Positions 7,390 through 52,896 of a stretch of DNA of 64,000 nucleotides are shown piece after piece (position 1 is the stretch's first letter; every line of letters starts with the position of its first letter). The position numbers and the translations under genes are program-made. Location: assembly GCF_001418335.1 (NCBI RefSeq), contig NZ_LIPP01000071.1, positions 72,104 through 136,103 on the forward strand, in the 5' to 3' direction. The notes below the pieces were generated by a model. It made no database searches. It was given only the letters and a program-made list of their open reading frames with translations, and was not told the DNA's origin. Source of the DNA: Streptomyces aurantiacus. GTDB lineage: Bacteria > Actinomycetota > Actinomycetes > Streptomycetales > Streptomycetaceae.

Positions 7390-7464
7390 CAGACGGTCCC
7401 GGTTCGGGTCCCGGTTCACAGTTCGACAGGTCGGCGTTCGGCAGATCGTGTCCCGTTCGGCGCG

Positions 7465-8439: not shown

Positions 8440-8527
8440 AGCCCCGAACTAATGAGCGGGAGCGCGGGAGAGGGGTCCACCGGCCGACTCCCGATGCGCG
8501 TGAGACCCACGGTCTATCGTGGATCAC

Positions 8528-9463: not shown

Positions 9464-9509
9464 CCGGCCCGGCCCGCCGAAGGCGACCCTCCTCCTTCAA
9501 GATGCGATC

Positions 9510-9541
9510 ATTTGCCTAAAAACTTTAGGCAAATGCATAAT
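9510..9541 (+). promoter_or_regulatory. Perfect 11-bp-arm palindrome next to a -10 box, TetR operator
   Basis: ATTTGCCTAAA (9510-9520), a three-base centre, then the exact inverse (9524-9534). A CATAAT -10 candidate follows at 9536-9541, 26 bases before the start of the TetR gene at 9568. Its AT-rich base content stands out from its surroundings. Autoregulation of the TetR-esterase operon is the natural reading. Confidence 0.78.
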
Positions 9542-9567
9542 GGTTCCGACCGAACGGGAGGAACCTC

Positions 9568-10137: not shown

Positions 10138-10187
10138 GGCGCCGGCCAGGCGGTCCCCCGAACACACCGAACGACAAGGCCGAAGCC

Positions 10188-11414
10188 ATGCACACCGAAA
10201 CCCCGCACACCGAGGACGACTGGATCACCACCCCCATCACCGCGGACCTCCTGCGCGGCGCCCTCGACCTGGAGCGCACCGAGCACGGCGTACTGCCGCA
10301 CCGGCTGCCCGCCTGGGTCCGCGCCCAGTACGCCGACGGGCAACTGGCCATGGCCGAGTCCCAGCCGTCGGGCGTACGGCTGGTCTTCCGCACCCGGGCC
10401 ACCACCGTGGAACTGGACACGCTGCCCACCAAGCGGATCTACGTCGGGGCCCCGCCCCGCCCGGACGGCCTGTACGAACTGCTCGTCGACGGGGTTCCTG
10501 CCGGCCGGGGCAGTGTGCGGGGCGGCAGGACGCTGACCATCGACATGACCGCCGGGAGCGCCGAGCTGCGGACCGGTCCCGCCGGCACCGTCCGCTTCAC
10601 CGGGCTGCCCGACGGCGGCGAGGACGGCAAGGACGTCGAGATCTGGCTGCCGCACAACGAGACCACCGAACTCGTCGCCCTGCGCACCGACGCCCCGGTC
10701 GAGCCCGCCCCCGACCAGGGGCGCAGGGTGTGGCTGCACCACGGCAGTTCCATCAGCCAGGGCTCGGACGCCGCTGGGCCGACCGCCATCTGGCCCGCCC
10801 TCGCCGCCTCCCTCGGCGGCGTGGAGCTGATCAACCTGGGCCTGGGCGGCAGCGCTCTGCTCGACCCGTTCACCGCCCGCGCCCTCCGGGACACCCCGGC
10901 CGACCTGATCAGCGTCAAGATCGGCATCAACCTGGTCAACGCCGATGTGATGCGCCTGCGCGCGTTCACCCCCGCCGTCCACGGCTTCCTCGACACCATC
11001 AGGGATGGCCGTCCCGACACACCGCTCCTGGTCGTCTCACCGATCCTGTGCCCCATCCACGAGGACACACCCGGCCCGAGCGCCCCGGACCTCACCAACC
11101 TCACCGACGGGCAACTGCGGTTCGTGGCCATGGGCGATCCGGCGGAGAAGGCGGCCGGGAAGCTGACTCTGCGCGTCATCCGCGACGAGCTGTCCCGGAT
11201 CGTGGCGCAGCGGTCGAAAGAGGACCCGAACCTGCACCACCTCGACGGCCTCGGCCTGTACGGCGAGGCCGACTTCGCCGAGCTGCCGCTGCCCGACGCG
11301 CTCCACCCAGACACGGCCACCCACCGCCGCATCGGCGAACGTTTCGCCGCACAGGTCTTCGCCGCCGGCGGAGCCTTCGCGCCGCGGAGCGTCACTCAGC
11401 CGCCGCCCCGCTGA
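10188..11414 (+). CDS. SGNH/GDSL-family esterase with N-terminal beta domain
   Basis: 408 aa. Residues about 1-170 form a beta-rich domain of the type found before SGNH esterases (carbohydrate-esterase-like). The SGNH domain follows: block I HHGSSISQGSD (nucleophile Ser about 187), LGLGGSALLDPF (block II Gly), KIGINLVNAD (block III Asn), and PDALHPD near the C-terminus carrying the Asp-His pair. There is no signal peptide, so it is cytoplasmic. It is the second gene of the TetR operon, and its last 19 bases overlap the convergent HATPase gene at 11396. Substrate unknown: perhaps acetylated sugars or another small ester. Confidence 0.88.
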   Translation: MHTETPHTEDDWITTPITADLLRGALDLERTEHGVLPHRLPAWVRAQYADGQLAMAESQPSGVRLVFRTRATTVELDTLPTKRIYVGAPPRPDGLYELLVDGVPAGRGSVRGGRTLTIDMTAGSAELRTGPAGTVRFTGLPDGGEDGKDVEIWLPHNETTELVALRTDAPVEPAPDQGRRVWLHHGSSISQGSDAAGPTAIWPALAASLGGVELINLGLGGSALLDPFTARALRDTPADLISVKIGINLVNADVMRLRAFTPAVHGFLDTIRDGRPDTPLLVVSPILCPIHEDTPGPSAPDLTNLTDGQLRFVAMGDPAEKAAGKLTLRVIRDELSRIVAQRSKEDPNLHHLDGLGLYGEADFAELPLPDALHPDTATHRRIGERFAAQVFAAGGAFAPRSVTQPPPR

Positions 11415-11905
11415 TCGGCTCCGGTCGGGCGGAAGCAGGCCGTCACCATCTTGCCGTGGCGCTGACAGCGCATCCCCCACTCGTCGGCGAGCATCCGTAC
11501 GATCCCCACCCCTCGGCCGGACATCTCGCCGGCCCCCGGGTCCCGTTGCCGCGGCAGCGTGGGGTCCTCGTCGTGGACGCACACATGGAGGCAGTCGCCG
11601 TCCCAGGTCAGTACCAGGTGCGCGTCACTGCGCGCATGGACGTGGGCGTTGGTCAGCAGCTCCGACACGGTCAGGACGACGGCGTCCACCGTGTCCGGCT
11701 CGGCCGCGGTCCATGGCAGGGACTCCAGGTGCTCGCGTGTCCACTCCCGCCCCGCGCGCACACCGCCCGCCACCGGGAACGAATGCGCCCAGCCCATCGC
11801 CCTGACCCCCACCGACCTGCTCCCGTCCCTGTCGTCCGTACGTTCGTACTCCCGCCGTACCCCCGTGTCACGAACCGGGTACCCGTCGGGCACGTACACA
11901 GGCAT
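11396..11905 (-). CDS. Second stand-alone HATPase (anti-sigma-like) regulatory protein
   Basis: 169 aa HATPase_c_2 protein with LTVSELLTNAHVHA (N-box), CVHDEDPTLP and GRGVGIVRMLADEWG motifs. The first 35 residues are poorly conserved and charged; ATG 11905 lacks a clear ribosome-binding site, and ATG 11797 (MGWAHSFP) would give a compact 133-aa domain protein. The stop overlaps the convergent esterase by 19 bp, so the two mRNAs have complementary 3' ends. This is probably a kinase/anti-sigma-type switch protein with unknown partner. It is not closely similar to the one at 6925. Confidence 0.85.
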   Translation of the reverse strand: MPVYVPDGYPVRDTGVRREYERTDDRDGSRSVGVRAMGWAHSFPVAGGVRAGREWTREHLESLPWTAAEPDTVDAVVLTVSELLTNAHVHARSDAHLVLTWDGDCLHVCVHDEDPTLPRQRDPGAGEMSGRGVGIVRMLADEWGMRCQRHGKMVTACFRPTGADQRGGG

Positions 11906-11923
11906 TTCGCCGTACTTCGGCGT

Positions 11924-12586
11924 TCAGCCGTCCGACGGGGTGGCGCGGATGGCGGCGATGTCGAACTGGAGGCGGACCTTGTCACTCACCATGGCGCCGC
12001 CCTCGGCCAGCCTGGTGTTGTACGTCAGGCCCCACTCGGAGCGGTTGATGGTGGTGGTGCCGTCGAAGCCGACGCGCTCGTAGCCGAACGGGTCGGTGAC
12101 ATAGCCGATGTACGTCAGATCGAGGACGACGGGACGCGTCCGGTTCTTGATGGTGAGGTCGCCGGTCATCCGGTAGAGATCCCTGTCCGCGAGCCGCACG
12201 GCGGTACTGAGGAATCGCATGTGCGGGTACGCGGCGGAGTCCAGGAAGTCACGGCCCGCCACGTGGCTGTCGCGCTGGTCCACGCCCGTCTCGACGCTGG
12301 CGGTGGACAGCAGGATCTCGGCCCCCGAGCGGGACGGGTCGCGGCCGTCGAAGTAGAGGCGGCTGCGGTAGTCCGTGAACGCGCCCCGCACCGTCGTGAC
12401 CATGGCATGCCGGACGGAGAAGCCGATCCTGCTGTGCGCGGGATCGATGACCCAGTTCCCGGTCAGCGTTCTCAGGTCGGGTTCGGACCGGCCGCCGTGG
12501 GGGACATCGGGCGGGCCGGCGGGCCGTTCCGGTTCGACGAGTGTGGTCGAGCGGCGGGGAGAAGCACCTCGATTAAAAAGATTCAT
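11924..12586 (-). CDS. YceI-family lipid-binding protein
   Basis: 220 aa. After a variable, proline-rich N-terminal 40 residues comes the YceI beta-barrel: GNWVIDPAHSRIGFSVRHAM, then GAFTDYRSRLYFDG, HMRFLSTAVRL, MTGDLTIKNRTRPV and NRSEWGLTYNTRL. Members form lipocalin-like barrels that hold a polyisoprenoid or fatty-acid-like ligand. There is no signal peptide, so it is probably cytoplasmic, as is common in actinomycetes. It begins at ATG 12586 and lies 18 bp upstream of the HATPase gene on the same strand, so the two may be co-transcribed. Confidence 0.9.
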   Translation of the reverse strand: MNLFNRGASPRRSTTLVEPERPAGPPDVPHGGRSEPDLRTLTGNWVIDPAHSRIGFSVRHAMVTTVRGAFTDYRSRLYFDGRDPSRSGAEILLSTASVETGVDQRDSHVAGRDFLDSAAYPHMRFLSTAVRLADRDLYRMTGDLTIKNRTRPVVLDLTYIGYVTDPFGYERVGFDGTTTINRSEWGLTYNTRLAEGGAMVSDKVRLQFDIAAIRATPSDG

Positions 12587-12890
12587 GACTCACCTAGCTA
12601 TTACGCAATAGATGTTTCCGCAAAGCCGAACCAAGATCCACGAGTTTACCGGATTCATACCCGGCAACTGGCCGACGACCCCCACCCGGCCAATGGGCCA
12701 CAGAATCCACACACCCGTTACCGAGCCCCCAGAAGGCACTGAGTGCCTGGCCTGAGCCACCGGCACCGAACGCCTCAAAACGACATGAATTCCACGCACA
12801 GAAAGGGGCAATATGCGCTGGGCGCCAGAATTGCGCCGATCACGGAAATGCGGTGAAGTCGTGACGGCACGGCACTGCGTGGCAGCGCCG
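12587..12890. other. Gene-free stretch upstream of yceI-like gene
   Basis: About 304 bp between the start of the YceI gene and the stop of the next minus-strand gene. The part nearest YceI (12590-12660) is clearly AT-richer than its surroundings and should carry its promoter, but I cannot assign -10/-35 boxes. No convincing ORF or hairpin was seen. Confidence 0.5.
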
Positions 12891-40912: not shown

Positions 40913-41662
40913 ATGCACATTGCCGAGGGTTTCCTTCCTCCGGCGCACGCGGTCGCCTGGGGCATCGCGTCGGCGCCGTTCGTCGTCCACGGAGTCCGGT
41001 CGCTCACCCGTGAGGTCAGAGAACATCCCGAGAGCACACTGCTCATCGGGGCGTCCGGGGCTTTCACATTCGTCCTCTCCGCGCTGAAACTGCCGTCCGT
41101 GACGGGCAGTTGCTCGCACCCGACCGGCACGGGACTGGGCGCCATCCTGTTCCGGCCGCCGGTCATGGCGGTGCTGGGCACCATCACCCTGCTCTTCCAG
41201 GCACTGCTGCTCGCGCACGGCGGCCTCACCACACTGGGCGCCAATGTCTTCTCGATGGCGATCGTCGGACCGTGGGCCGGGTACGGGATCTACCGGCTGC
41301 TCCGGCGGCTCGACGTGCCGTTGATGGTCGCGGTGTTCTTCGGCGCGTTCGTCGCCGACCTGTCCACCTACTGCGTCACCAGCGTGCAGCTGGCGCTCGC
41401 GTTCCCCGACCCGAGCAGCGGATTCCTGGGCGCGCTCGGCAAGTTCGGCTCGATCTTCGCCGTCACGCAGATCCCGCTCGCGGTGAGCGAGGGGCTGCTG
41501 ACCGTCCTCGTGATGCGGCTGCTGGTGCAGTCGAGCAAGGGCGAACTGACCCGGCTCGGCGTGTTCCTCGCCAGGAAGCAGTCCGGGACCCGGACGGCCG
41601 AGTCCGCCGAGACCACCGCGGCGACCAAGACCTCCGAAACGACCGAGACGGTGGTCCGATGA
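40913..41662 (+). CDS. cbiM: Cobalt ECF transporter S component CbiM
   Basis: Membrane protein that binds Co(II) for import, 249 aa. It starts [17 protein letters not shown]; the Met-His N-terminus and a later His supply the metal site in this family. About seven membrane helices are seen, including [40 protein letters not shown] and [18 protein letters not shown] loop [13 protein letters not shown] is family-typical. The C-terminus has a Thr/Ala/Glu-rich tail. ATG 40913 lies 43 bp after the riboswitch; the stop overlaps cbiN by ATGA. Expression is B12-controlled. Confidence 0.95.
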
Positions 41663-42069
41663 GCCGTAACGCGAAGATCAACGCCGTGCTGCTGTTCGTC
41701 GTGGCCGCGCTCGCCGTACTGCCGCTGGCCTTCGGCCTGGGCGACCACAAGAAGGAGCCGTTCACGGGCTCCGACACGGAGGCGGAGACCGCGATCACCG
41801 AGATCGAGCCGGACTACGAGCCGTGGTTCTCGCCCCTGTACGAGCCGCCGTCCGGTGAGATCGAGTCGGCGCTGTTCGCCCTCCAGGCCGCCCTCGGCGC
41901 GGGCGTCCTCGCCTACTACTTCGGTCTGCGCCGGGGGCGGCGACAGGGCGAACTGCGTGGTTCGGCACGGCGGGACGACGGTCAGGGCCCGCCGCCCGCC
42001 GCGGCCGGTGGTACGGGCGGTGCCGGCGGTACAAGCGGTGCCGGTGGGTCCGCGGCCGGACGGGCCTGA
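41659..42069 (+). CDS. cbiN: Cobalt ECF transporter accessory subunit CbiN
   Basis: 136 aa with two membrane helices: [20 protein letters not shown] (about 8-27) and [20 protein letters not shown] (about 70-90). The loop between them ([20 protein letters not shown] and following) is the family signature that helps load CbiM. The C-terminus ends in a long Gly/Ala-rich tail ([20 protein letters not shown]), longer than usual. The start overlaps the cbiM stop (ATGA), and the stop is 6 bp from cbiQ. Confidence 0.93.
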
Positions 42070-42075
42070 GTCTTC

Positions 42076-42825
42076 GTGCTGCCGATCGACGCGGCGGCGC
42101 ACAGCAGCCGCTGGCGCCACCGCCACCCCGTGGACAAGGCCGTGCTCGGCCTCGGCCTGACCGTGCTGGCGATCTCGCTCCCGCCCTGGCCGGGCGCCGC
42201 CCTGGTACTGGTGACGGCCCTCGTCGTGATGCTGGGCCCGGCCGCCGTACCGGGGCGCCGGCTCTGGCGCGCCTACCGGGTGCCGCTGGGTTTCTGCGTG
42301 ACCGGGGCACTTCCGCTGCTCCTCCAGGTCGGCGGTCCCGACGGGTTCGTGACCCTGGCCGCGGGCGGGCCGACGCGCGCCGGCGAACTGCTGCTGCGCA
42401 CCTCCGCCGCCTCCCTCGGAGTGCTCCTGTTCGCGTTCACCACCCCCATGTCCGACCTGCTCCCCCGCCTGGTGAACGCCGGAGTGCCCGCGCCGGTCGT
42501 CGACGTCGCCCTGGTGACGTACCGGATGAGCTTCCTGCTCCTCGACTCGGTACGCCGTATCAGGGAGGCGCAGGCCGCCCGGCTCGGGCACACCACACGT
42601 GCCGCCACCTGGCGCTCCCTGGCCGGGCTCGGCGCGACCGCCTTCATTCGGGCCTTCGACCGGGCGACGCGGCTGCAGGCGGGGCTCGCCGGGCGCGGTT
42701 ACGACGGCACGCTGCGCGTCCTGGTACCGGAGGCCCGGGTCTCCGCGCGTTTCACGCTCGCCGCCGGCGCGCTGCTCGCGGCCGTGGCCGCACTCACCTT
42801 CGTACTGGAAAGGGCGCTGCGATGA
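42076..42825 (+). CDS. cbiQ: ECF transporter T component CbiQ
   Basis: Transmembrane coupling protein, 249 aa, GTG start 42076. Helices include AVLGLGLTVLAISLPPWPGA, ALVLVTALVVMLGPAAVPG, and a C-terminal one near VLERALR. The coupling region has the conserved arginine-rich ARGYDGT-like LAGRGYDGTLRVLV and AFIRAFDRATRLQ segments that contact the ATPase. It ends in ATGA overlap with cbiO. Together with CbiM, CbiN and CbiO it imports cobalt for cobalamin biosynthesis. Confidence 0.93.
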   Translation: MLPIDAAAHSSRWRHRHPVDKAVLGLGLTVLAISLPPWPGAALVLVTALVVMLGPAAVPGRRLWRAYRVPLGFCVTGALPLLLQVGGPDGFVTLAAGGPTRAGELLLRTSAASLGVLLFAFTTPMSDLLPRLVNAGVPAPVVDVALVTYRMSFLLLDSVRRIREAQAARLGHTTRAATWRSLAGLGATAFIRAFDRATRLQAGLAGRGYDGTLRVLVPEARVSARFTLAAGALLAAVAALTFVLERALR

Positions 42826-43685
42826 ACGAGCCCGTGCTGGTCGCCCTGCGGGGCGCGTCGTACGCGTACGAGGACGGCCCGGCCGTGCTCAGCGGCCTCG
42901 ACTTCGAGGTGCGGGCGGGACGCGCGCTCGCCCTGCTCGGCCGCAACGGCAGCGGCAAGACCACGCTGATGCGGCTGCTCAGCGGCGGACTCCGGCCGCG
43001 CGCCGGACAGTTGACCGTCGAGGGCCGGCCGGTCCGGTACGACCGCAAGGGCCTGACCCTGCTGCGTACGACCGTCCAGCTGGTGGTCCAGGATCCGGAC
43101 GACCAGCTGTTCGCCGCGTCCGTCGCCCAGGACGTGTCGTTCGGGCCGCTGAACCTCGGCCTGCCCGACACCGAGGTACGGGCCCGGGTGGACGAGTCGC
43201 TCGCCGCGCTGGACATCTCGGCGCTGGCCGACCGGCCCACCCATCTGCTCTCCTACGGCCAGCGCAAACGGACCGCGATCGCGGGCGCGGTGGCGATGCG
43301 GCCGCGTGTCCTGATCCTCGACGAACCGACCGCGGGGCTCGACCCGGACGGCCAGGAGCGGCTGCTCGCGACCCTCGACGGGCTGCGCGAGAGCGGCACC
43401 ACCGTGGTGATGGCGACGCACGACGTGGACCTCGCCCTGCGCTGGGCCGACGACGCGGCGCTCCTCACCCCGGCCGGAGCGGTCACCGGCCCGGCGGCCC
43501 CGACCCTGGCCCGTACGGACCTCCTGGAGCAGGCGGGACTGCGCCTGCCCTGGGGCGTCGCGGTAGCTGAACTCCTGCGGGTCCAGGACTTGTTGACCGG
43601 CCCGCACCCCGGCCCGCGTACCGCGGACGAACTGGCTGCCCTGACCTCACGGCAGTCCGCTCCCCCGGTACCGGCCGAGGGCTGA
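42822..43685 (+). CDS. cbiO: ECF transporter ATPase CbiO
   Basis: 287 aa ABC ATPase. Walker A GRNGSGKTTLMRLL (about 43-56), Q-loop VVQDPDDQLFA, signature LSYGQRKRTAIAGAVAMRP, Walker B ILDEPTAGLD and H-loop MATHDVDLAL are all intact. The signature LSYGQ is the usual variant in this family. It completes the four-gene cobalt uptake operon under the riboswitch. Confidence 0.95.
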   Translation: MNEPVLVALRGASYAYEDGPAVLSGLDFEVRAGRALALLGRNGSGKTTLMRLLSGGLRPRAGQLTVEGRPVRYDRKGLTLLRTTVQLVVQDPDDQLFAASVAQDVSFGPLNLGLPDTEVRARVDESLAALDISALADRPTHLLSYGQRKRTAIAGAVAMRPRVLILDEPTAGLDPDGQERLLATLDGLRESGTTVVMATHDVDLALRWADDAALLTPAGAVTGPAAPTLARTDLLEQAGLRLPWGVAVAELLRVQDLLTGPHPGPRTADELAALTSRQSAPPVPAEG

Positions 43686-43814: not shown

Positions 43815-44318
43815 ATGGGTAAGCACCCAGTCATAGCCGCGGCCGTCACCGCGGTCACCGTCGGCGCGCTGGCTGTCGCCGCCGCCGCGCCGGCCCAGGC
43901 GGCCGAGTACCACTCGGCGCTGAAGATCCGCGGCGTGCAGTACGACGCGCCCGGCAGCGACTCCAACAGATGTTCCGGGGGGAACACGGACGAGGAGTAT
44001 GTGACGATCAAGAACTACTCGTCCTCGGCGACCATCAACCTCAAGAACTACCTGGTGAAGGACGCCGCGGGCAATCGTTTCCGCTTCACCGCGAATCACT
44101 ATCTCCAGCCCGGCGACTACGTGAAGCTGCGCGGCGGCAACGGCTCCGACTCGGACAGCCGGAACGTCGTCTACCGCGACAACTGCAACTTCATGTGGAA
44201 CAACAGCGGCGACACGATCTACCTCGACAAGCCCTCCGGCAGCCGTTCCGACGTGCACGCCTACACGAAGCGTGGCTCCGACCCCGACAACAACGGCTAC
44301 ATCCGTTTCCACAACTGA
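43815..44318 (+). CDS. Secreted lamin-tail-domain (LTD) protein
   Basis: 167 aa. ATG 43815 follows GGAGGGGGAA. The signal peptide (IAAAVTAVTVGALAVAAAAP, cut at AQA-AEYH about residue 30) precedes an Ig-like LTD: ALKIRGVQYDAPGSDSN, EYVTIKNYSSSATINLKNYL, VKDAAGNRFRFTANHYLQPG. Two cysteines (NRCSGG, RDNCNF) probably form a disulfide. LTD domains bind surfaces or nucleic acids and occur in many exported Streptomyces proteins. Function unknown. Confidence 0.9.
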   Translation: MGKHPVIAAAVTAVTVGALAVAAAAPAQAAEYHSALKIRGVQYDAPGSDSNRCSGGNTDEEYVTIKNYSSSATINLKNYLVKDAAGNRFRFTANHYLQPGDYVKLRGGNGSDSDSRNVVYRDNCNFMWNNSGDTIYLDKPSGSRSDVHAYTKRGSDPDNNGYIRFHN

Positions 44319-44356: not shown

Positions 44357-45754
44357 TCAGGCCGTGGCGGCCTCGCGCTCGCGGTCCGTCAGTGGTGGGC
44401 CCGCGAGATGGGGCTTCTTGCGCCCGAAGCAGACCAGGGCGAGCATGTCGGGCATGAGCAGCCTGGCAGGTGGCTTCTCCATGCTCATCACGTCCAGCAG
44501 GATGCGCAGGGCGCGGGGGTTGCGCGAACCGGTGTCGACGGCCCGGTCCACGAAGGCGGCAAGAGCCCTTTCCAGCCGCGTGGGGGGCTCGTCGCTCGCG
44601 CCGGGGTAGAACACGTCCTGGCCCACGGCCAGGCTCCAGGCGTTCTCGACCGGACGTGCCGCGCTCTTCTGGATGCGCCGGGCCGTACCGGGGGCGCGCA
44701 GGTCCTGCCTTTCCAGGATGTGGCGCAGCGCGACGACGCTCTGCGCGGCGGCGCTCAACCCGTGCCCGTAGACGGGGTTGTAGCTGCCGACCGCCTCGCC
44801 GAGAACGGCGAAACCGTCGGGCCAGCGGGCGGCCTTCTCGTAGTAGCGGCGCCTGTTGGCCGTGCTGCGGGTCGTGACGACGTCCGTCTCGGGTTCGGCG
44901 CCGGCGAGGAGCTCACCGATGACGGGGTGCGGCAGACCGAGTGCGAACGGCACGAACGCGTCGTTGTCCGCGCTCGGCCTGCCTCCCCTGGTTCCGGCCA
45001 GCGTGACCAGCCACCGGCCGCCCTCGATGGGGGCGATGATGCCGCCCCTGCCGGGATTCCGCCGGGGGTCGGCCTGGACGTTGACGATCGGAAAGCCTTC
45101 GGCGGCCGTGCCGGGGGCGCGATAGATCCGGCTGGCGTAACCGAAGCCGGCGTCGACCGTACGCTCCGCCACCGGTGGGAGTCCGAGGTCCCGCAGCCAG
45201 GCGGGAGCGCGGCTGCCCCGCCCGCCGGCGTCGATCACCAGGTCGGCGGGAAGGGCGCTTTCGACGTCCGCCGACCGGATGCGGACTCCGGTCACGCGGC
45301 CGGCACCGCCTTCCAGGGACAGCAGTTCGGTCTCCTGTCGCAGGGTGATGCGGTGGCTTTTCAGCACTCGGGCGCGGATCACCGCGTCGAGCAGGTCCCG
45401 GCTGCACAGAAGGCTCAGGTGGCCGGCGTGGTTGAAGCGCCGGAACCACTGGCCCGAGGGGGCCTTGGACACCAGGCCGGCCATGACGGGGATCATCCGG
45501 GCGCCCCGGTCGACGAGTTGGCCGACGACGCCCGGCAGGAGGTCGTCGAGGGCCTTGACGCCACCGGACCACAGGATGTGTGCGTGCCGGGCCTGCGGAA
45601 GGCCCTTGCGGGGCCGGGGCCCGTCCGGCAGGAGGTCCCGCTCGACGATCGTGACGTCCGCGTGGTCGGCGAGCACCGAGGCGGCGAGCATGCCCGTCAT
45701 GCCCCCTCCGACGACGATCGCACTGCGCCCGGTGGTGGAGTTCGTGTCAGGCAT
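44357..45754 (-). CDS. FAD-dependent monooxygenase / epoxidase-like
   Basis: 465 aa. N-terminal dinucleotide motif AIVVGGGMTGMLAASVLADH, then a VERDLLP acidic strand end, ARHAHILWSGG, and the second FAD motif GFAVLGEAVGSYNPVYGHGL (Asp of the usual GD motif is Glu here). There is no signal peptide. It resembles group A flavin monooxygenases (2-polyprenylphenol/geranylgeranyl reductase-like). It is 230 bp downstream of two membrane proteins and an ImmA-like peptidase on the same strand, and may be part of that cassette; the substrate is unknown. Confidence 0.87.
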   Translation of the reverse strand: MPDTNSTTGRSAIVVGGGMTGMLAASVLADHADVTIVERDLLPDGPRPRKGLPQARHAHILWSGGVKALDDLLPGVVGQLVDRGARMIPVMAGLVSKAPSGQWFRRFNHAGHLSLLCSRDLLDAVIRARVLKSHRITLRQETELLSLEGGAGRVTGVRIRSADVESALPADLVIDAGGRGSRAPAWLRDLGLPPVAERTVDAGFGYASRIYRAPGTAAEGFPIVNVQADPRRNPGRGGIIAPIEGGRWLVTLAGTRGGRPSADNDAFVPFALGLPHPVIGELLAGAEPETDVVTTRSTANRRRYYEKAARWPDGFAVLGEAVGSYNPVYGHGLSAAAQSVVALRHILERQDLRAPGTARRIQKSAARPVENAWSLAVGQDVFYPGASDEPPTRLERALAAFVDRAVDTGSRNPRALRILLDVMSMEKPPARLLMPDMLALVCFGRKKPHLAGPPLTDREREAATA

Positions 45755-45983
45755 GGGTGTTGGCCCTCTCTGTCGACCGCCGTCGGTGCGTGGCTGCGGG
45801 CACGCGGGTCGCGCGGGTGGGCGATCGCTGCTCGGAGCCCGGAGCCGGGACTTCTTCGGTCCGGCCCTCCCCCTGATCGAACCATGATCGCGTCAGGAGG
45901 TCATCAGGGCCTCCGGTATGCCAAGTGGGCGCGCGAGGCGTTCTGTTGACTGGGTATCAGGTGTGGCGGCCCGGCAACCGGCC

Positions 45984-47171
45984 TCAGTCGTGGCGTACTT
46001 TCTGCCGGGCAGCGTGCCGGCGGGCCTCCGCGACGACCGGCGAGCGGGACAGGGCCCGAGCCAGCTCCACCATCAGGTGCGGCTTCGTTACCGACCGCAG
46101 CCGGCCGACGTCCGACGGGATCTCCGCGTCCTGGCCCGTGCCGAGCCGCGCCCTGGCCGCCGCGAGCATGGCCGCCTCGGCGACGATCTCCAGGTGGGCC
46201 GGTCCCGCCCGCTCGCCCGGTGAGACCGCCTGTGCGCGCAGCGCCGAGCAGGCGGCCCGGTGGACCTCGTTGTCGAGGTAGGGCGAGCACACCAGGACAC
46301 CGTCCAGGATCGTGATCTCCTGCCGTACCAGGCGCACCACGGGCAGGTCCCACCAGTGGGTGTCGGCCACCGGTACCCGCAGGTCGCGCATCTCCAGCCA
46401 GAGCGGTCTGAGCAGGCGGCACCGCCGCCAGGCCCGGAAGTTGTCCGCGGTCGCGGGGCCGACGCGCGGCAGCGCGAAGCCGGCGGCGACGGTGACGCCC
46501 GCCGCGGCCACCAGGGGCGGCGAGACGCTCGTGGAGAGGAAGTCCCAGTCGTGGCCGGCCAGGCGGGCGCCGATGGCCAGGTACTTGGCGATCTGGTACG
46601 ACAGGTCGAGCAGCACGCCGACGACGATCAGCGTCAGGCCCTGGCGGGTGAGGCCCCGTACCTTCCGCAGCCATGCCAGGCACATGACCGCGAGGGCGGC
46701 GGTGGCCGCGGTGTGGAACATCAGGTACAGCAGGATCATTTCCCGCATGTACGGCGTGTTGGCGTAGTAGGTGTCCAGGTCCCGGGTCCGTTGCACGGGC
46801 ACGTCGGACAGGGCGAAGAGGGTGACGATCCCGATGATCACCAGCCCGTAGACGCACACCACCCGGCGGGACGCGCGGGCGACCCGCTCGGGTTTCCCGC
46901 CTCTCCAGGCGATCATCAGGACGAGGTAGCAGGCGCTGAGCGCGGACATCCCCGAATAGACCAGCGGCGCCGAGAAGTTGGTGATGCCGGTGAGCCCGTT
47001 GACGACGCCGATGGTGGGGGGCGCGGACAGGATGCACACGAGGGCGCCGATGAGCAGCACGGAGATGCTCGCGGCCATCAGCGGGTCACGCCACTCCCCT
47101 CTCATGGCCGGCAGGTTGAGGACCGCGGTGACGAGAAGGATCACGCCTGGGATGTAGAGGACGGCGTCCAC
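45984..47171 (-). CDS. Seven-helix membrane protein, MAB_1171c / DUF6545 type, copy 2
   Basis: 395 aa from GTG 47171. About seven membrane helices fill residues 1-235 (for example AVLYIPGVILLVTAVLNLPA, ASISVLLIGALVCILSAPPT, VVCVYGLVIIGIVTLFALSD). A cytoplasmic C-terminal half follows (ARRHAARQKVRHD at the end). Shared core with the next copy: WRDPL, APPTI, FSAPLVY/FSSPLVY, DTYYANTP/DTYYATTP, REMI and LYL. The family is described only as a putative transporter. It is 70 bp downstream of copy 1 on the same strand. Confidence 0.85.
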   Translation of the reverse strand: MDAVLYIPGVILLVTAVLNLPAMRGEWRDPLMAASISVLLIGALVCILSAPPTIGVVNGLTGITNFSAPLVYSGMSALSACYLVLMIAWRGGKPERVARASRRVVCVYGLVIIGIVTLFALSDVPVQRTRDLDTYYANTPYMREMILLYLMFHTAATAALAVMCLAWLRKVRGLTRQGLTLIVVGVLLDLSYQIAKYLAIGARLAGHDWDFLSTSVSPPLVAAAGVTVAAGFALPRVGPATADNFRAWRRCRLLRPLWLEMRDLRVPVADTHWWDLPVVRLVRQEITILDGVLVCSPYLDNEVHRAACSALRAQAVSPGERAGPAHLEIVAEAAMLAAARARLGTGQDAEIPSDVGRLRSVTKPHLMVELARALSRSPVVAEARRHAARQKVRHD

Positions 47172-47245
47172 GCTTCACCGGCCTTCCGCGGCCGGGGAAG
47201 GCCGGTGCTCGGGCGGTGCTGAGCGGCAGGGTGAAGGTGGTTCAT
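47141..47245 (-). CDS. Possible 34-aa coupling ORF between the two membrane-protein genes
   Basis: ATG 47243-47245 overlaps the stop of copy 1 as ATGA, and its own TGA lies 31 bp into copy 2. The peptide starts MNHLHPAAQHRPSTGLPR. There is no ribosome-binding site of its own; it would depend on re-initiation. It could be a coupling ORF, a short peptide, or chance. Confidence 0.25.
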   Translation of the reverse strand: MNHLHPAAQHRPSTGLPRPRKAGEAWTPSSTSQA

Positions 47246-48480
47246 GTGGGGGACTTCTCGCCGTCCTCGGCCGGGGAGGCGGCAGGGCTCACGCGGGCCT
47301 CGTCGTCCTCCGCCGGGGATGTGGCGAGGCCCGCGCGGGCAGCCGCGACGATCGGGGACGTGCGCAGCGCGGCCGATACGCCCACGGGGGCGGTGCGCAC
47401 CGCGCTGATCTCGGAGTGGTCGGGAAGGAGGCGGGAGCCGACGGGCAGGCCCCGGCGGACGGCCCGGACGGCGGCGGCGACCATCGCCGCGTGACCGATC
47501 CTGTCGGCCTCGTCGCCGGTGTGGCCCTCGGCGAGCGCCGCGCTCCGCGCGCGGGTACGGACCTCGGTGTCGAACCACGGTGCCACGAGGCTCAGCCCGT
47601 CCTGGACGCCCGCCTCGCGCTGGGTGAGGCGTACCCGGGGCGACGAGTACCACGGGATGGGGCCGGCGAGCGGCGTCCGGGGCGAGGCGCCCCCCAGTTC
47701 GCGCCACAGTGGGCCGAGCTTCCGGTAGGTCGTCGCCGCCCGCCAGTTGTAGACCACCCAGGGGCCCACCAGGGGCAGCAGGAATCCGACGGTGGCGCAG
47801 GGCGCGGACATCGCGGAGAGCGCGGGCGCCAGGGTCGTACTGAGGGCTCCCCAGTCCTGACCGGCCCAGCACGCCGCGACCGCGGCCATTTTGAGGCCGC
47901 TGAAGGCGAGGTTCAGCAGCCAGCCCACGACGAGGATCCACAGGCCTGCCCGCAGCCACCCGCTGACCTGGAGTGCCCAGCGCCAGCACAGCACCGTCGT
48001 GACGAGCGCTGCGGTCATGTGGGCGACCAGGTACAGGACGATCATCTCGCGGATGAACGGGGTCGTCGCGTAGTAGGTGTCGAAGTCGGTGTGCCGGTCC
48101 ACCGGGGCGTCACCGAGCACGAAGAGGACCACGAGCATGACGACGACCAGGGCGTACCCGGCCTGCCAGCGCCGCGAGACGCGCCGCACGTACGCGGGCG
48201 GGCCCCCACGCCAGTGGACGATGAGCAGCAGGCAGGCGGCGCTGAAGGCGCTGATGATGCCGTACACCAGAGGGCTGGAGAAGTTGGCTGTGCCGGTGGC
48301 CTCGTTGACGGCGTCGATCGTGGGCGGAGCCGCGAAGAAGAACCCGGCGCCGCCGAGAGCGATCACCAGGCAGACGGACCGTACGAGCGGGTCGCGCCAG
48401 TCCTTCACCAGGCCCGGCAGTTTGACGGCCAGGCCGACCAGTGTGGCGACGGCCGGGGTGTAGTAGTCCGATGAGTTCAC
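47242..48480 (-). CDS. Seven-helix membrane protein, MAB_1171c / DUF6545 type, copy 1
   Basis: 412 aa, GTG start 48480, three bases after the stop of the peptidase gene, so the two are surely co-translated. The seven-helix N-terminal half (VATLVGLAVKLPGLVK, VCLVIALGGAGFFFAA, IISAFSAACLLLIVHW, YALVVVMLVVLFVLGD) and the cytoplasmic C-terminal half match copy 2 in motif order, but overall identity looks modest. The C-terminus carries a duplicated SPAEDDEARVSPAASPAEDG acidic tail. Confidence 0.87.
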   Translation of the reverse strand: MNSSDYYTPAVATLVGLAVKLPGLVKDWRDPLVRSVCLVIALGGAGFFFAAPPTIDAVNEATGTANFSSPLVYGIISAFSAACLLLIVHWRGGPPAYVRRVSRRWQAGYALVVVMLVVLFVLGDAPVDRHTDFDTYYATTPFIREMIVLYLVAHMTAALVTTVLCWRWALQVSGWLRAGLWILVVGWLLNLAFSGLKMAAVAACWAGQDWGALSTTLAPALSAMSAPCATVGFLLPLVGPWVVYNWRAATTYRKLGPLWRELGGASPRTPLAGPIPWYSSPRVRLTQREAGVQDGLSLVAPWFDTEVRTRARSAALAEGHTGDEADRIGHAAMVAAAVRAVRRGLPVGSRLLPDHSEISAVRTAPVGVSAALRTSPIVAAARAGLATSPAEDDEARVSPAASPAEDGEKSPT

Positions 48481-48483
48481 TGC

Positions 48484-49047
48484 TCAGACCTGTGGCCGGC
48501 GCTGTCCGAGCGACGCACCGATGCGGCCTGCGATCCGGCCCCGGTCCATGGCCGCACTGTCGGGTTCGCCCTCCAGCCGGCCGCGGAACCGGGTGACGGC
48601 CAGCAGGCCGAACCGCTCGGCGTCCGCCTCCTCGCGCCGGTCGAACTCGGTGCGGGCGGCCACCTTGCGGGCCGGCTCCTGGAGTTCGGGGAGTTCGGCG
48701 CCGGTCGAGAGCATCCGGGCCGCCACCGCCTTGCCCACGACGTGGTTGCCGCAGTCTCCCTTGAGCATGTGCCAGACCTCGTGGAAGAAGATCGCCAACT
48801 GGTGCAGGGGCGTCGCCCGCTTGTCCACCACGATGAGGTCGTAGGCGGGGAGGTCGAGCCACAGTCCGCTGGCGGTGTGGTGCGGGAACTCCTCCTTCAC
48901 GAGCCGGACCTCACGGCCTCTCAGCTCGCTCACGGCCGTGATCAGCGCGGCGAACAGCGCGTCCGGATCCGCCGGCGTGGGAAGAGTCAGCCTGTCGGCC
49001 AGCTGACCGATCAGGTTCCGCATCTCTCTGGCTCTGCTTGTGCGCAC
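48484..49047 (-). CDS. ImmA/IrrE-like zinc metallopeptidase
   Basis: 187 aa. GTG 49047 (GGGGAG four bases before it) or ATG 49023. The HExxH motif is HEVWHMLKGDCGN (about residues 88-100), preceded by DLIVVDKRATPLHQLAIFF, the strand-helix order of ImmA-like (DUF955) peptidases. A third ligand could be the Glu/Asp in RREEADAERFGLLAVTRF. ImmA-type peptidases cut an XRE repressor to trigger genes; no XRE gene is adjacent. First gene of a four-gene minus-strand cassette with the two membrane proteins and the FAD monooxygenase. Confidence 0.82.
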   Translation of the reverse strand: MRTSRAREMRNLIGQLADRLTLPTPADPDALFAALITAVSELRGREVRLVKEEFPHHTASGLWLDLPAYDLIVVDKRATPLHQLAIFFHEVWHMLKGDCGNHVVGKAVAARMLSTGAELPELQEPARKVAARTEFDRREEADAERFGLLAVTRFRGRLEGEPDSAAMDRGRIAGRIGASLGQRRPQV

Positions 49048-49421
49048 CGCTCTCCCCGTGAACCTCAGCACGGGCACCGTCGCGCGGCGTCCGCCGAATC
49101 CCAACTGACCACCGGCACGGGCTCCAGCGCGCCCCACTCGGTAGGCAAATATGTCAAACGAGAGCCGTGTCGGCCACACCTGAATCCAAGAAGTGCCCGG
49201 AGGGAGGCGAGCAGAAATACCGAACAAGCCCGACATGCACGAGTCTGGTCCTGGCGCATTCGTTGCGCTCATCTCCGCCTTTCGGGCAGGTCTTGATCCA
49301 GTCACTCGTCGGCCGGGGCGTTTCTTCGGCCGGTCGCGGCGTGCACGCGTGTACGCAAAGGGCGGTCGAACCTGCCTTCACAGGTCCGACCGCCCTCAGT
49401 GGGATGCGTAGAACAGTGCCG
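49048..49421. other. 374-bp region between ImmA-like gene and DUF1996 gene
   Basis: Holds the promoter of the cassette on the minus strand, and a terminator-like hairpin (49359-49396). The peptidase frame is open further upstream, but without a ribosome-binding site and with unlikely composition. I saw no XRE-like ORF in it. Confidence 0.5.
49359..49396 (-). terminator. Terminator of the DUF1996 gene
   Basis: A 16-bp stem with one mismatch (49359-49374 with 49381-49396), loop of six, 25 bp after the DUF1996 stop and followed by TTTGCG on that strand. Confidence 0.8.
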
Positions 49422-51476
49422 CTACTTCGACCGACTGGCGATGCGGCGCAGGAGCACGAAGCCGGCGATCACCAGCAGCCCGCCGGCCGCGGCCGGCCAC
49501 AGGCTCGTACCGGTGTCCGCCAGTCCACCCGTGACCGTCTGCGGTTCGGCCAGGCCGCCCGCGTCCGAGGGTTCGGGGCCGGGTACGGCGCCGGCGGCGT
49601 CCGAGCCGTCTGCCGAGCCGGCCGCGTCGCTCTTGACGGCTGACGGGGAGGTGTCGGCCTTGGGCTGTGCGTCGTTCTTGCCCTTGTCCGCGCCGCCCGC
49701 CGCCTCGGTCTCCTGGGTGCTGCTGACCGTGGGCTCCGGCGCGTTCTCGTCGCCGTTGTCCGCCGGGTCGTCGGACTGCTCGCCGCCGCCCGGCTGCTCG
49801 GTCGCGGGCTGATCGTTGTCGCCTGTCGGGTCCGGAGCAGGCGTCGTCGGCGGTTTGGTCGGCTCCTCGCCGCCACCGCCACCGCCGTTGCCGCCTCCAC
49901 CGTTGCCGCCGCCGTTGCCGCCGTCCGCGGAGTCACACTTGCGGCCCTCGTTGATGCAGTCCACCATCTCCGCCATCAGCGCCTCGTCGAAGACGTTGAC
50001 GAAGTCGCCGTGGTCGGTGACCGGCTTGTGGAGCTGCTCGGGGAAGGAGTCGACCGCGAACAGCGGCTTCGTCTTGCCGCCGTCGGCCACGCTGGGCGCG
50101 TCGATGTCGTAGACGATGCGCTGCACCAGCTGCGGGATGGCACGGAAGTCGCCCGCGCAGGCGCCGTTGGCGTCGGCGAAGGCCATGTGCGTGCGGTGGT
50201 TGGCACTGTCGATGTTCCGGCCGTCCCAGCAGCTCTGGAACTTGAAGGTGCGGACCACGTCACTGCCCTGGGGGCAGAGCGGGTACTTGTCCTTCAGCTG
50301 CCGGTTCTCGAAGCCGGTGCAGCTCCAGGACGCGTTGGCGTTGGCGGGGCCGTTGACGAACGACTTGGCGTCGCCGGTGATGATGCGCAGCAGCTTCGGC
50401 ATGGCCGTGACCTCGCCGCGCGGACTGCCCACGAAGTTCAGCGTGACCTGCTTGGGCGTGACGATCTCACCGGCGTTGCCCTCGATGCCGCCGCCGGGAG
50501 AGGCCGCGTCCTTCTCGTCGGTGCCGTTCTGCAGCCGCACCACGGGCCAGTAGTACGAGGACTTGTCGCCCTCGTTCGCACAGCTCGTCTCGGCGTTGGT
50601 CAGGTCCTCGTCGCTCGCGAAGGCGTCGTTGGACTGGTTGCCGACGTAGTCGTGGAAGTGGTGGGCCCCGTTGGTGACACCGGGGGCCGCGATGATGTTG
50701 TCGGAGTTGAACAGTCCTTCGGCGTTCACACCACAGCTGGTGGTGAAGGAACCCTTGGAGGCGCCGTCCTGGGCACTCGGCTTCGGCACATTGGGCTGAA
50801 CGCTCTTGATGTCCGCGAAGTCGGCGACCACGGGACCGTTCCCGGTCTGACCGCCGTTGCCGCCCTGCTGGTCGCCCTGGTCCTGACCGTCGCCCTGGTC
50901 CTGGCCGTCCTGGTTGTCGGCGTTGCCGGCGTCATCGGCGTTGCCGTTGTCGCCCTGGCCCTCGCCGTTCTCCTCGCCGTCCTGCCCGTTCGCCGGCTCG
51001 TCCTGGTTGCCGGAGGCGCGCAGGATGCAGGGCGCGAACGCGTCGAGGCCCTCCGGGCGGTCCCCCACGGCGTCGATGGCTGCCACGATCCGATCGATCG
51101 CCGCCGCTCGCTTGTCCTTGAGCGGGTTCATGATCGAGTTGTCGGCGAAGGCCGCGTCCTGCTTGATCGCCTCCGCTGAGCTCTGCAGTCGCTGATAGGC
51201 CTCGGCGATCTGCTTGTCCAGGAGGGCGAGTTCCTTGTCGACCTGCGTCTTGGCGCCGTCCGGCACCGCCGCCAGCTCACTGCCGACATCCGGGCAGTCG
51301 ATCGTGGCGGCACCCGAGGCAAGGACCTGGTTGGTCCGGTTCTCGCCCGAGGTGCTCTCGGAGGCCGTGGCGTAGACGTTCGCCGCTACCAGCCCACCTC
51401 CTCCCAGCATCAGCGCGACCGCCCCTATGGTCGCGCGTCGTGCGCCTGTTGGGCGTCTGCGCGTGTTGCGTACCAA
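49422..51476 (-). CDS. LADTG-anchored surface protein with DUF1996 domain
   Basis: 684 aa. The start is TTG 51476: AGGAG lies seven bases before it, and the basic residues before a hydrophobic signal (ATIGAVALMLGGGGLVAANV) fit. An N-terminal helical region (60-160) and Gly/Asp/Gln-rich linker lead to DUF1996 (about 235-500; HHFHDYVGN, NHRTHMAFADANGACAGDF). A long Gly/Pro/Glu/Asp-rich stalk follows. The C-terminal signal is LADTG, then WPAAAGGLLVIAGFVLLRR and a basic tail, the Streptomyces sortase class E pattern (LAXTG). The protein is expected to be covalently anchored to peptidoglycan. DUF1996 function is unknown; fungal relatives are secreted. Confidence 0.92.
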   Translation of the reverse strand: MVRNTRRRPTGARRATIGAVALMLGGGGLVAANVYATASESTSGENRTNQVLASGAATIDCPDVGSELAAVPDGAKTQVDKELALLDKQIAEAYQRLQSSAEAIKQDAAFADNSIMNPLKDKRAAAIDRIVAAIDAVGDRPEGLDAFAPCILRASGNQDEPANGQDGEENGEGQGDNGNADDAGNADNQDGQDQGDGQDQGDQQGGNGGQTGNGPVVADFADIKSVQPNVPKPSAQDGASKGSFTTSCGVNAEGLFNSDNIIAAPGVTNGAHHFHDYVGNQSNDAFASDEDLTNAETSCANEGDKSSYYWPVVRLQNGTDEKDAASPGGGIEGNAGEIVTPKQVTLNFVGSPRGEVTAMPKLLRIITGDAKSFVNGPANANASWSCTGFENRQLKDKYPLCPQGSDVVRTFKFQSCWDGRNIDSANHRTHMAFADANGACAGDFRAIPQLVQRIVYDIDAPSVADGGKTKPLFAVDSFPEQLHKPVTDHGDFVNVFDEALMAEMVDCINEGRKCDSADGGNGGGNGGGGNGGGGGGEEPTKPPTTPAPDPTGDNDQPATEQPGGGEQSDDPADNGDENAPEPTVSSTQETEAAGGADKGKNDAQPKADTSPSAVKSDAAGSADGSDAAGAVPGPEPSDAGGLAEPQTVTGGLADTGTSLWPAAAGGLLVIAGFVLLRRIASRSK

Positions 51477-51690
51477 GGATCTACTCCTACGCTTCTGTTG
51501 CCGACCGGCATGGCAATCCCCCGCCTCATACGGAGATGAAGCTCCGAGTGTTCAAACGCCTCTCGGATTCATAGAAACCTCTCATGAACCAGACGTTTGC
51601 GCGGCCCGTGTCCGGGCAATCACGTTTTCCTGCCGTCTGGTTGGGGACGTGCCGATCCGACGCACTCTGCGACGCCAGGGCGCGCGTGCG

Positions 51691-52896
51691 TCACCAGCGC
51701 ACCGGCAGCTCCCGTACGCCCCTGATCAGCAGCCCCGGGATCCACGGCAGCCCGGTCTCGTCCGCGTCCTGTGCGAGGTCCGGGCAGCGTGCCAGGAGCG
51801 TGCGGATCGCGATACGGCCCTCCAGCCGGGCCAGCGGGGCTCCCAGGCAGTAGTGCAGGCCGTGGCCGAACGCGATGTGGCCGCGGGCGTCACGCCGGAT
51901 GTCGAAGCTGTCGGGGTGCTGGAAGCGCTCGGCGTCGCGGTCGGCGTCGGCCATGGCGATCAGGACGGTGGAACCCGCCGGAACGGTCACCGCGCCCATC
52001 TCCACGTCCGTCAGGGCGAGACGGTCCGTGCACGTCTCCACCGGGCCGTCGTAGCGCAGCATCTCCTCGATCGCTCCGTCGAGGAGCCCGGTGCCGGCGC
52101 GCAGCGCGGCGAGTTGGTCGGGGTGTGCGAACAGGGCCCGCATGCCGTTGCCGATGAGGTTGACCGTCGTCTCGTGGCCGGCGATGAGCAACAGCACCGA
52201 CATGCCGATGAGTTCGTCCGGGGAGAGCCGGTCGCCGCCCTCGTCGACGGCGTGGATCATCGCACTCAGCAGATCATCGGCATGCTGTGCCCGCTTGGCC
52301 GCGACCAGTTCGGCGAGGTAGGCCGCCATCGCGTCGTAGGCCGCCGACTCCGCCTCCGGACTCGTACGGGCCACCATCTCGTTGGACCAGCCGCGGAAGG
52401 CGTCCCGGTCGAGTGTGGGGACGCCGAGCAGTTCACAGATGACGGTCATCGGCAGCGGGAACGCGAAGGAGGCGACCAGATCGGCCCGCCGCTCCTTCGC
52501 CACCAGCATCGTGTCCAGCAGTTCGTCGGCGATCTCCTGGACACGCGGGGCCAGGGTGTCGACCCGGCGCGGCGTGAACTCCTTGGCCACCAGCCGCCGC
52601 AGCCGGGTGTGGTCCGGCGGGTCCGACATCAGCATGTGGGCGAGGGCGGGCTGGTCCGCCCTGGTGTTGATGATCTGCCCCATGGTCCCGGACTTGCGCC
52701 AGTCCCGGCTCAGCCGGGGGTCGGTGAAGGCGGTGCGGCACGCCTCATGGCCGACGACGAGCCACACCTCCTCGCCGCCGGGATCGAGCACCCGGTGCAC
52801 CGGTCCTGCGGCGCGGAGCTCGGCGTAGACGGGATAGGGATCGCGGGTGAAGCTCGCTCCGAGCTTCCGCAGATCGACAACAGGCCCTGCTTGCAC
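51691..52896 (-). CDS. Cytochrome P450 (bacterial CYP107/CYP105-like)
   Basis: 401 aa heme monooxygenase, GTG start 52896. I-helix LLIAGHETTVNLIGNGM (acid-alcohol pair ET), ExxR in EEMLRYDGPVETCTDR (Glu-Met-Leu-Arg), and heme loop FGHGLHYCLGAPLARLEGRI with the cysteine ligand. The N-terminal YPVYAELRAAGPVHRV and DPPDHTRLRRLVAKEFTPRR are typical of the class. No ferredoxin or reductase is adjacent. The substrate is unknown; it is not in an evident biosynthetic cluster. Confidence 0.94.
   Translation of the reverse strand: MQAGPVVDLRKLGASFTRDPYPVYAELRAAGPVHRVLDPGGEEVWLVVGHEACRTAFTDPRLSRDWRKSGTMGQIINTRADQPALAHMLMSDPPDHTRLRRLVAKEFTPRRVDTLAPRVQEIADELLDTMLVAKERRADLVASFAFPLPMTVICELLGVPTLDRDAFRGWSNEMVARTSPEAESAAYDAMAAYLAELVAAKRAQHADDLLSAMIHAVDEGGDRLSPDELIGMSVLLLIAGHETTVNLIGNGMRALFAHPDQLAALRAGTGLLDGAIEEMLRYDGPVETCTDRLALTDVEMGAVTVPAGSTVLIAMADADRDAERFQHPDSFDIRRDARGHIAFGHGLHYCLGAPLARLEGRIAIRTLLARCPDLAQDADETGLPWIPGLLIRGVRELPVRW

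What the first reader, a model, noticed from the sequence alone, without database searches (positions are those of the whole stretch)
44357..49047. Four-gene cassette: ImmA-like peptidase, two DUF6545-type 7TM proteins, FAD monooxygenase
Seen: a metallopeptidase (HEVWH), a seven-helix protein starting three bases after its stop, a diverged second copy 70 bp on, and a flavin monooxygenase, all on the minus strand. Established: ImmA/IrrE peptidases usually cleave an XRE repressor to release a stress or mobile-element response. Inference: here the usual XRE partner is missing and duplicated membrane proteins are present instead, so the peptidase may sense or cut a membrane-linked partner, and the monooxygenase may make or modify the signal. 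It could be a signalling or defence module that has not been described.
Basis: partly seen in the sequence, partly recalled or inferred. Interest (0 to 1): 0.75.

Follow-up and report, generated by a model that had tools for sequence, protein, structure and literature searches.

The report
Orphaned peptidase–7TM receptor–epoxidase signalling cassette
This Streptomyces stretch carries a stripped-down copy of a widespread but unstudied actinobacterial gene module: a predicted repressor-cutting protease nearly always paired with a seven-helix membrane protein, plus an enzyme of the kind that epoxidises polyenes, and it may be a membrane-to-gene signalling route in which the membrane protein controls the protease.

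Summary
In detail: on the minus strand, a 187-aa HEVWH peptidase, two DUF6545/MAB_1171c 7TM proteins (40% identical) and a flavin monooxygenase, spaced as stated. The neighbourhood is conserved far beyond chance: in 148 genomes of the class, 41 of 48 DUF6545 genes (35 of 37 above cut-off) sit with an HExxH peptidase gene, mostly directly downstream of it. Peptidase and 7TM distances track closely (r = 0.93). The missing XRE gene is real here but secondary: 110 of 140 related peptidase loci have an XRE gene directly upstream, including a window-type cassette in S. ureilyticus; a Streptomyces linear plasmid has a five-gene version with it. All nine genomes with the window-type cassette still encode the standard-locus XRE. 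The flavoenzyme is a Lsd18/MonCI-type polyene epoxidase (E = 5e-115). The 7TM model (pLDDT 92) is N-out/C-in, with its most conserved loops outside, plus a cytosolic helical domain. Best reading: a receptor–protease–repressor signalling module, here detached from its own repressor and with two receptor paralogues. All four genes are under purifying selection. No evidence for phage defence. Ligand, cleavage target and regulon are unknown.

The parts
48484..49047 (-). ImmA/IrrE-like (M78-superfamily) metallopeptidase, 187 aa, GTG start; HEVWH at 48783-48769, third-ligand-type Glu (E132 of the 179-aa form) at about 48630-48628
   Evidence: HExxH invariant and E132 invariant or nearly so across relatives; remote M78 homology; purifying selection
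47242..48480 (-). DUF6545 / MAB_1171c-family 7TM protein, copy 1 (412 aa): seven helices, N-out/C-in, plus cytosolic helical domain
   Evidence: 54 bits; 130.8 bits, cut-off 100; AlphaFold2 pLDDT 92.3; topology
45984..47171 (-). DUF6545 / MAB_1171c-family 7TM protein, copy 2 (395 aa), old paralogous lineage
   Evidence: 35.7 bits; 109 bits, cut-off 100; 40% identity to copy 1; separate clades
44357..45754 (-). FAD-dependent epoxidase of the Lsd18/LasC-MonCI family (465 aa)
   Evidence: family profile vs Lsd18/LasC E = 4.5e-177; window protein vs Lsd18 E = 4.7e-115; motifs RKGLPQARHAHIL and NPVYGHGLS
49131..49178 (-). Upstream block TGTGGCCGACACGGCTCTCGTTTGACATATTTGCCTACCGAGTGGGGC, nearly identical in the four closest species; candidate promoter/operator (inference)
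   Evidence: 19-bp core found only in this cassette and its three closest orthologues among fetched loci

Best explanation
The cassette is a detached, two-receptor version of a conserved actinobacterial module: XRE repressor, ImmA/IrrE-like metallopeptidase, DUF6545 7TM protein, and often a Lsd18/MonCI-type epoxidase. SHOWN by sequence: the genes, their conserved operon-like order across many genera, the co-divergence of peptidase and 7TM protein, the secondary absence of XRE here, and purifying selection. INFERRED: the 7TM protein is a receptor that binds a ligand at its conserved extracytoplasmic face; its cytosolic helical domain holds or activates the soluble peptidase; the active peptidase cleaves an XRE repressor and derepresses target genes, as ImmA does to ImmR. 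This resembles BlaR1-BlaI logic split over separate proteins. In this genome no XRE is encoded in the cassette, so the substrate would be supplied in trans; the XRE of the standard locus (G000:C62) is the prime candidate. Most tentative: the epoxidase makes or destroys the lipophilic (polyene or isoprenoid) ligand. Two receptor paralogues would allow two ligands or a heterodimer.
For: Surveying from DUF6545 rather than from the peptidase, 41 of 48 hits in 148 genomes of the class lie with an HExxH peptidase gene, 35 of 37 above the curated cut-off, in about ten families besides the window's own; gaps are mostly -19 to +66 bp. Peptidase and 7TM distance matrices correlate at r = 0.93 over 47 loci, none of 2000 permutations as high. 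XRE lies directly upstream in 110 of 140 peptidase loci; L145 and L123 show tandem-7TM cassettes with XRE, and the tree needs several changes of XRE state; plasmid NZ_CP108815.1 carries HTH - 'toxin component' - MAB_1171c - DUF6545 - oxidoreductase, homologous to the window's genes. All 9 genomes with the window-type cassette keep the standard XRE. 7TM: confident model, positive-inside topology, outer loops the most conserved. Peptidase: zinc motif and third Glu retained; its dN/dS and the epoxidase's are the lowest of the four. Repressor inactivation by ImmA is described in PMC2701414.
Against: No interaction, cleavage or ligand has been shown. XRE-peptidase pairs without any 7TM gene are common (55 of 140), so the 7TM protein is not needed for the basic pair. 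The standard XRE's operator-like sites are absent from the window, so that XRE need not control this cassette. XRE co-occurrence could be shared ancestry. Foldseek matches are not significant (7TM best E = 0.05, peptidase best E = 0.04). NCBI names the 7TM family a putative transporter. The epoxidase is the least coupled member (r = 0.67-0.75).
Confidence: 0.45

Rival explanations
1. The 7TM proteins are membrane enzymes or transporters that act together with the epoxidase on a lipid or polyene (like the fungal pair of FAD epoxidase and integral-membrane cyclase Pyr5/Pyr4), and the XRE-peptidase pair merely regulates the operon.
For: The epoxidase is a close relative of Lsd18/MonCI, and Lsd18 can epoxidise farnesyl acetate (PMC12144862). 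The family is annotated as putative transporter. FAD monooxygenase genes lie beside two 7TM genes without an annotated peptidase on plasmid NZ_CP107895.1.
Against: Across the class the 7TM gene's usual partner is the peptidase, not the epoxidase; most loci outside Streptomyces lack the epoxidase, and peptidase-7TM coupling is tighter. A large cytosolic helical domain is conserved. No transporter or cyclase fold was matched significantly in the PDB. The Pyr4/Pyr5 comparison is from memory, not tested.
Confidence: 0.2
2. It is a three-part toxin-antitoxin or addiction system of the predicted XRE-COG2856 kind, and the window copy is a fragment.
For: XRE-COG2856 pairs were predicted as toxin-antitoxin systems (PMC2701414). 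NCBI names the peptidase 'toxin-antitoxin system, toxin component'. The 7TM family occurs on 26 plasmids, in annotated cases beside that gene.
Against: The window cassette persists under purifying selection in several species without any antitoxin gene in it. ImmA is established as an anti-repressor, not a toxin. The same authors excluded XRE-membrane protein pairs as toxin-antitoxin candidates.
Confidence: 0.12
3. Orphan remnant: after losing XRE the cassette has no regulatory role, or keeps only the epoxidase function.
For: No XRE and no standard operator in the cassette; the peptidase tree needs several changes of XRE state.
Against: dN/dS 0.15-0.24 for the peptidase and 0.17-0.18 for the epoxidase against the closest species, catalytic residues intact, no frame disruption, and a conserved upstream block.
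Confidence: 0.13
4. Undescribed phage-defence module in which the membrane protein senses infection and the peptidase triggers a response.
For: Peptidase plus membrane protein plus HTH is a plausible defence layout; the module is patchy and plasmid-borne in places.
Against: No PADLOC match for any of the four proteins, no phage record encodes the 7TM protein or the peptidase at E <= 1e-5, and the window neighbours are ordinary chromosomal genes.
Confidence: 0.05

Closest known systems
ImmA-ImmR of ICEBs1 and IrrE(PprI)-DdrO (XRE-COG2856 / M78 systems)
   Same: Small soluble HExxH peptidase of the M78 superfamily encoded with an XRE-type repressor in the standard form of the module; repressor cleavage is the likely output.
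   Different: Here a 7TM protein is a frequent third partner, the window copy has no XRE gene, and the peptidase is too diverged for Pfam to recognise directly.
BlaR1-BlaI / MecR1-MecI
   Same: Membrane sensor that controls a cytosolic-side gluzincin and a repressor: the same logic as proposed here (analogy, from general knowledge).
   Different: BlaR1 is one polypeptide with an M56 peptidase and a penicillin-binding sensor domain; here receptor and peptidase are separate, the receptor is 7TM, and repressors are XRE/HTH_3. BlaR1 came up only as a weak Foldseek hit (E = 0.16).
Lsd18/LasC and MonCI polyene epoxidases
   Same: Full-length homology (E = 1e-105 to 5e-115) with close versions of both diagnostic sequence regions.
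   Different: Encoded in a regulatory-type cassette with no polyketide synthase gene beside it; substrate unknown.
MAB_1171c of Mycobacterium abscessus (NF042915 namesake)
   Same: Same family of 7TM proteins by name and model.
   Different: Only a mutant phenotype is reported (about half the biofilm mass; PMC8707978), interpreted there as transport; no link to a peptidase.

Membership tests
ImmA/IrrE (Peptidase_M78) metallopeptidase | HExxH zinc motif and downstream third-ligand-type Glu, with profile homology to M78 | tested here: met
   HEVWH and E132 conserved in the family; hhalign to 21 true M78 proteins 93.5%, E = 2.2e-7
ImmA/IrrE (Peptidase_M78) metallopeptidase | Direct match of the window protein to the Pfam model | tested here: not met
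   No Pfam match at E <= 1; 15 of 36 relatives match weakly, best E = 5e-4
ImmA/IrrE (Peptidase_M78) metallopeptidase | Cleaves an XRE-family repressor | not testable with these tools
   Needs biochemistry
XRE-COG2856 pair (predicted toxin-antitoxin) | XRE gene adjacent to the peptidase gene | tested here: not met
   Absent beside the window peptidase, though present in 110 of 140 relatives and in the genome at C62
DUF6545 / MAB_1171c family | Score above curated cut-off | tested here: met
   Both copies pass Pfam PF20182 and NCBIfam NF042915
MAB_1171c family 'putative transporter' | Transport activity | not testable with these tools
   The only experimental report found is a biofilm phenotype (PMC8707978)
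Lsd18/MonCI polyene epoxidase | Full-length homology and the two conserved regions flanking the flavin | tested here: met
   close but not exact matches to the motifs in PMC10560226
Lsd18/MonCI polyene epoxidase | Location in a polyether polyketide gene cluster | tested here: not met
   No polyketide synthase among the ten window neighbours examined
G-protein-coupled receptor fold | Significant structural match to GPCRs | tested here: inconclusive
   7TM, N-out/C-in; top Foldseek hits are mostly GPCRs, but E >= 0.05 and GPCRs are very numerous in the PDB
Known anti-phage defence systems (PADLOC) | Match to a PADLOC model | tested here: not met
   No match at E <= 1 for any of the four proteins

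The most novel reading that the evidence does not exclude
A bacterial seven-helix receptor, with N-out/C-in topology like GPCRs, directly switches on a separate cytosolic metallopeptidase that destroys an XRE repressor; a dedicated polyether-type epoxidase makes or erases the lipophilic signal. In the window lineage the receptor-protease unit has been uncoupled from its own repressor and acts on repressors encoded elsewhere.
Probability: 0.25. Interest if true: 0.85.

Novelty: new variant of a known kind. Interest (0 to 1): 0.55.

Why it matters
ImmA/IrrE peptidases are known to be activated by signals that are mostly unidentified. A module in which such a peptidase is tied to one 7TM protein, in many Streptomyces and in other actinomycetes, offers a concrete candidate receptor that can be tested. 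It also gives the uncharacterised DUF6545/MAB_1171c family a functional context, and shows that the polyether-epoxidase family extends into regulatory-type cassettes, where its product might be a signal rather than an antibiotic intermediate.

Tried and rejected
Recent tandem duplication of the 7TM gene: rejected, the two copies belong to separate old clades. XRE pseudogene upstream: no tblastn hit better than E = 0.05. Control of the cassette by the standard XRE through its usual operator: the two conserved sites occur perfectly only at C62 in this genome and not in the window. Phage or defence origin: no PADLOC or phage hits. Peptidase-7TM gene fusion as proof of interaction: one case found (L064/L273), but it has lost the transmembrane helices and no second case appeared among 247 genomes of the genus, so it is treated as a private deletion. 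GPCR homology: not claimed, Foldseek E-values not significant. Solved-structure search with the peptidase and 7TM profiles: nothing significant.
Full report
WHAT IS THERE. In transcription order: a 187-aa peptidase (48484-49047, GTG start, HEVWH); a 412-aa 7TM protein starting 3 bases after its stop (47242-48480); a 395-aa second 7TM protein 70 bp on (45984-47171; 40% identical to the first); and a 465-aa flavoenzyme (44357-45754). Both 7TM proteins exceed the curated cut-offs of DUF6545 and MAB_1171c. The genome is a 9.26-Mb assembly; all 80 organism-named relatives of the peptidase are Streptomyces except one labelled only Actinobacteria bacterium, so the source is a Streptomyces.

THE PEPTIDASE. 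The window protein has no Pfam match. In an alignment of 36 relatives the HExxH residues are invariant and a downstream Glu of the third-ligand type is nearly so. Fifteen of the 36 match Peptidase_M78 weakly, and profile-profile comparison with 21 true M78 proteins gives 93.5% probability, E = 2.2e-7. The AlphaFold2 model is good in its core (pLDDT 90+), but its Foldseek hits (a minigluzincin, PprI/IrrE, BlaR1, a mycobacterial regulator) are weak. I call it ImmA/IrrE-like by remote homology.

THE 7TM PROTEINS. The model of copy 1 has mean pLDDT 92. It shows seven helices and a cytosolic helical domain, which contains the Pfam DUF6545 region. Lysine and arginine concentrate in loops 1, 3, 5 and after helix 7, so the N-terminus is outside and the C-terminus inside; the outer loops are the most conserved. 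Foldseek's best hits are mostly GPCRs, but none is significant. Receptor function is therefore an inference from topology and conservation.

THE FLAVOENZYME. The family profile matches the polyene epoxidases Lsd18/LasC at E = 4.5e-177 and MonCI at about 1e-155; the window protein alone matches Lsd18 at 4.7e-115. It carries RKGLPQARHAHILWSGG and NPVYGHGLS, close versions of two regions that PMC10560226 describes as present only in polyether-biosynthesis enzymes. The cassette members are thus a counter-example, or a sister group, outside polyether clusters. Lsd18 also accepts farnesyl acetate (PMC12144862), so an isoprenoid substrate is conceivable.

NEIGHBOURHOOD CONSERVATION. To avoid circularity I surveyed from DUF6545. 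In 148 genomes of the class, 26 carry it, with 48 hits; 41 lie with an HExxH peptidase gene, 35 of the 37 above the curated cut-off (counted by hand from these outputs). The peptidase is nearly always directly upstream; over all loci, 78 of 82 gaps lie between -19 and +66 bp. About ten families besides the window's own are represented. Peptidase and 7TM distance matrices correlate at r = 0.93 over 47 loci; the epoxidase correlates less (0.67-0.75 over 24 loci).

WHERE XRE WENT. In 110 of 140 peptidase loci an XRE/HTH gene lies directly upstream (the loci are partly redundant). In the standard Streptomyces locus this pair is divergent from a protein that is a stand-alone MmyB-type ligand-binding domain (PF17765, 51.7 bits). 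An MmyB-like regulator has been crystallised with a fatty acid (PMC3406030 abstract). Fifty-five loci have XRE-peptidase without a 7TM gene. Window-type cassettes without XRE occur in seven other Streptomyces genomes (L075-L081). S. ureilyticus (L145) has the same kind of cassette with an XRE gene, and lies as sister to the XRE-less clade in the peptidase tree (98/98). A Streptomyces linear plasmid carries the full five-gene order HTH, 'toxin component', MAB_1171c, DUF6545, oxidoreductase, with 38-47% identity to the window proteins. So absence of XRE is most simply a loss, and the tree needs several changes of that state. All nine genomes with the window-type cassette retain a standard XRE, the other eight being 86-95% identical to the window genome's. 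That is suggestive of trans supply but not independent of ancestry.

REGULATORY DNA. Two conserved operator-like sites precede the standard XRE gene (GTCAACTATCGTGGCA and CGCCACAGTTGTGGCG). In this genome each occurs perfectly once, at C62, and the window has neither beyond chance. The window cassette instead has its own upstream block at 49131-49178, nearly identical in the four closest species. The cassette therefore appears to have separate transcriptional control.

SELECTION AND MOBILITY. dN/dS against the closest species is 0.15-0.24 (peptidase), 0.25-0.31 and 0.28-0.37 (7TM copies) and 0.17-0.18 (epoxidase), with no disrupted frames. The three closest relatives share the upstream DUF1996 gene, so the location is stable in that lineage. 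Relatives of the 7TM protein occur on 26 plasmids, sometimes beside replication genes; no phage record matched.

MECHANISM. Shown: the conserved module, its co-divergence, local XRE absence against an XRE-bearing background, and continued selection. Inferred from known systems: the peptidase cleaves an XRE repressor as ImmA does to ImmR (described in PMC2701414). Inferred from topology and frequent pairing: the 7TM protein senses something outside or in the membrane and controls the peptidase through its cytosolic domain. Speculative: the epoxidase makes or removes the ligand, and in this lineage the substrate XRE comes from the standard locus. I put 0.45 on the overall reading.

NOVELTY. No paper held here mentions DUF6545; one mentions MAB_1171c, for a biofilm phenotype. 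Makarova and colleagues noted XRE-COG2856 pairs and, separately, excluded XRE-membrane protein pairs from their toxin-antitoxin list. The three-part coupling appears undescribed in the literature I could search, which lacks most subscription journals. I rate it a new variant of a known kind; it would become categorically new only if receptor control of the peptidase were shown.

Noticed in passing
L035 (G000:C62), about 9229-12624: Standard Streptomyces locus: a stand-alone MmyB-type ligand-binding domain protein is divergent from XRE-peptidase(-7TM); two operator-like sites between them (GTCAACTATCGTGGCA, CGCCACAGTTGTGGCG) occur perfectly only here in the genome.
   Followed up: partly
L064:8736-10247 (G064:C15), also L273: Single-genome fusion of the peptidase to the cytosolic DUF6545 domain with the transmembrane helices missing; the frame is open and the zinc motif intact. 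Close relatives have separate genes.
   Followed up: yes
L211 (about 6740-8050) and L202 (about 6600-8750): Loci with an XRE gene next to or near a DUF6545 gene but no HExxH peptidase between them, the reverse of the window's loss.
   Followed up: partly
Cassette epoxidase genes, e.g. window 44357-45754, L036, L061, L285: Polyether-type epoxidase sequence signatures, said in PMC10560226 to be confined to polyether biosynthesis, occur in cassettes with no polyketide synthase gene seen beside them.
   Followed up: partly
L283, L284, L285, L286 (Streptomyces linear plasmids): The cassette and its variants sit on large linear plasmids, sometimes near RepL2 or primase genes; one (L283) has monooxygenase-7TM-7TM-monooxygenase with no annotated peptidase.
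   Followed up: partly
window 40913-43685 (+): Cobalt-type ECF transporter operon (CbiM, CbiQ, ABC ATPase) just beyond the cassette's end; ordinary.
   Followed up: no
window 43815-44318 (+): Small protein with a signal-peptide-like N-terminus and a Lamin Tail Domain (PF00932), convergent with the epoxidase gene.
   Followed up: no
window 49422-52800 (-): DUF1996 protein with a C-terminal anchor-like tail, and a cytochrome P450, upstream of the cassette; the DUF1996 gene is also next to the cassette in L075-L077.
   Followed up: partly
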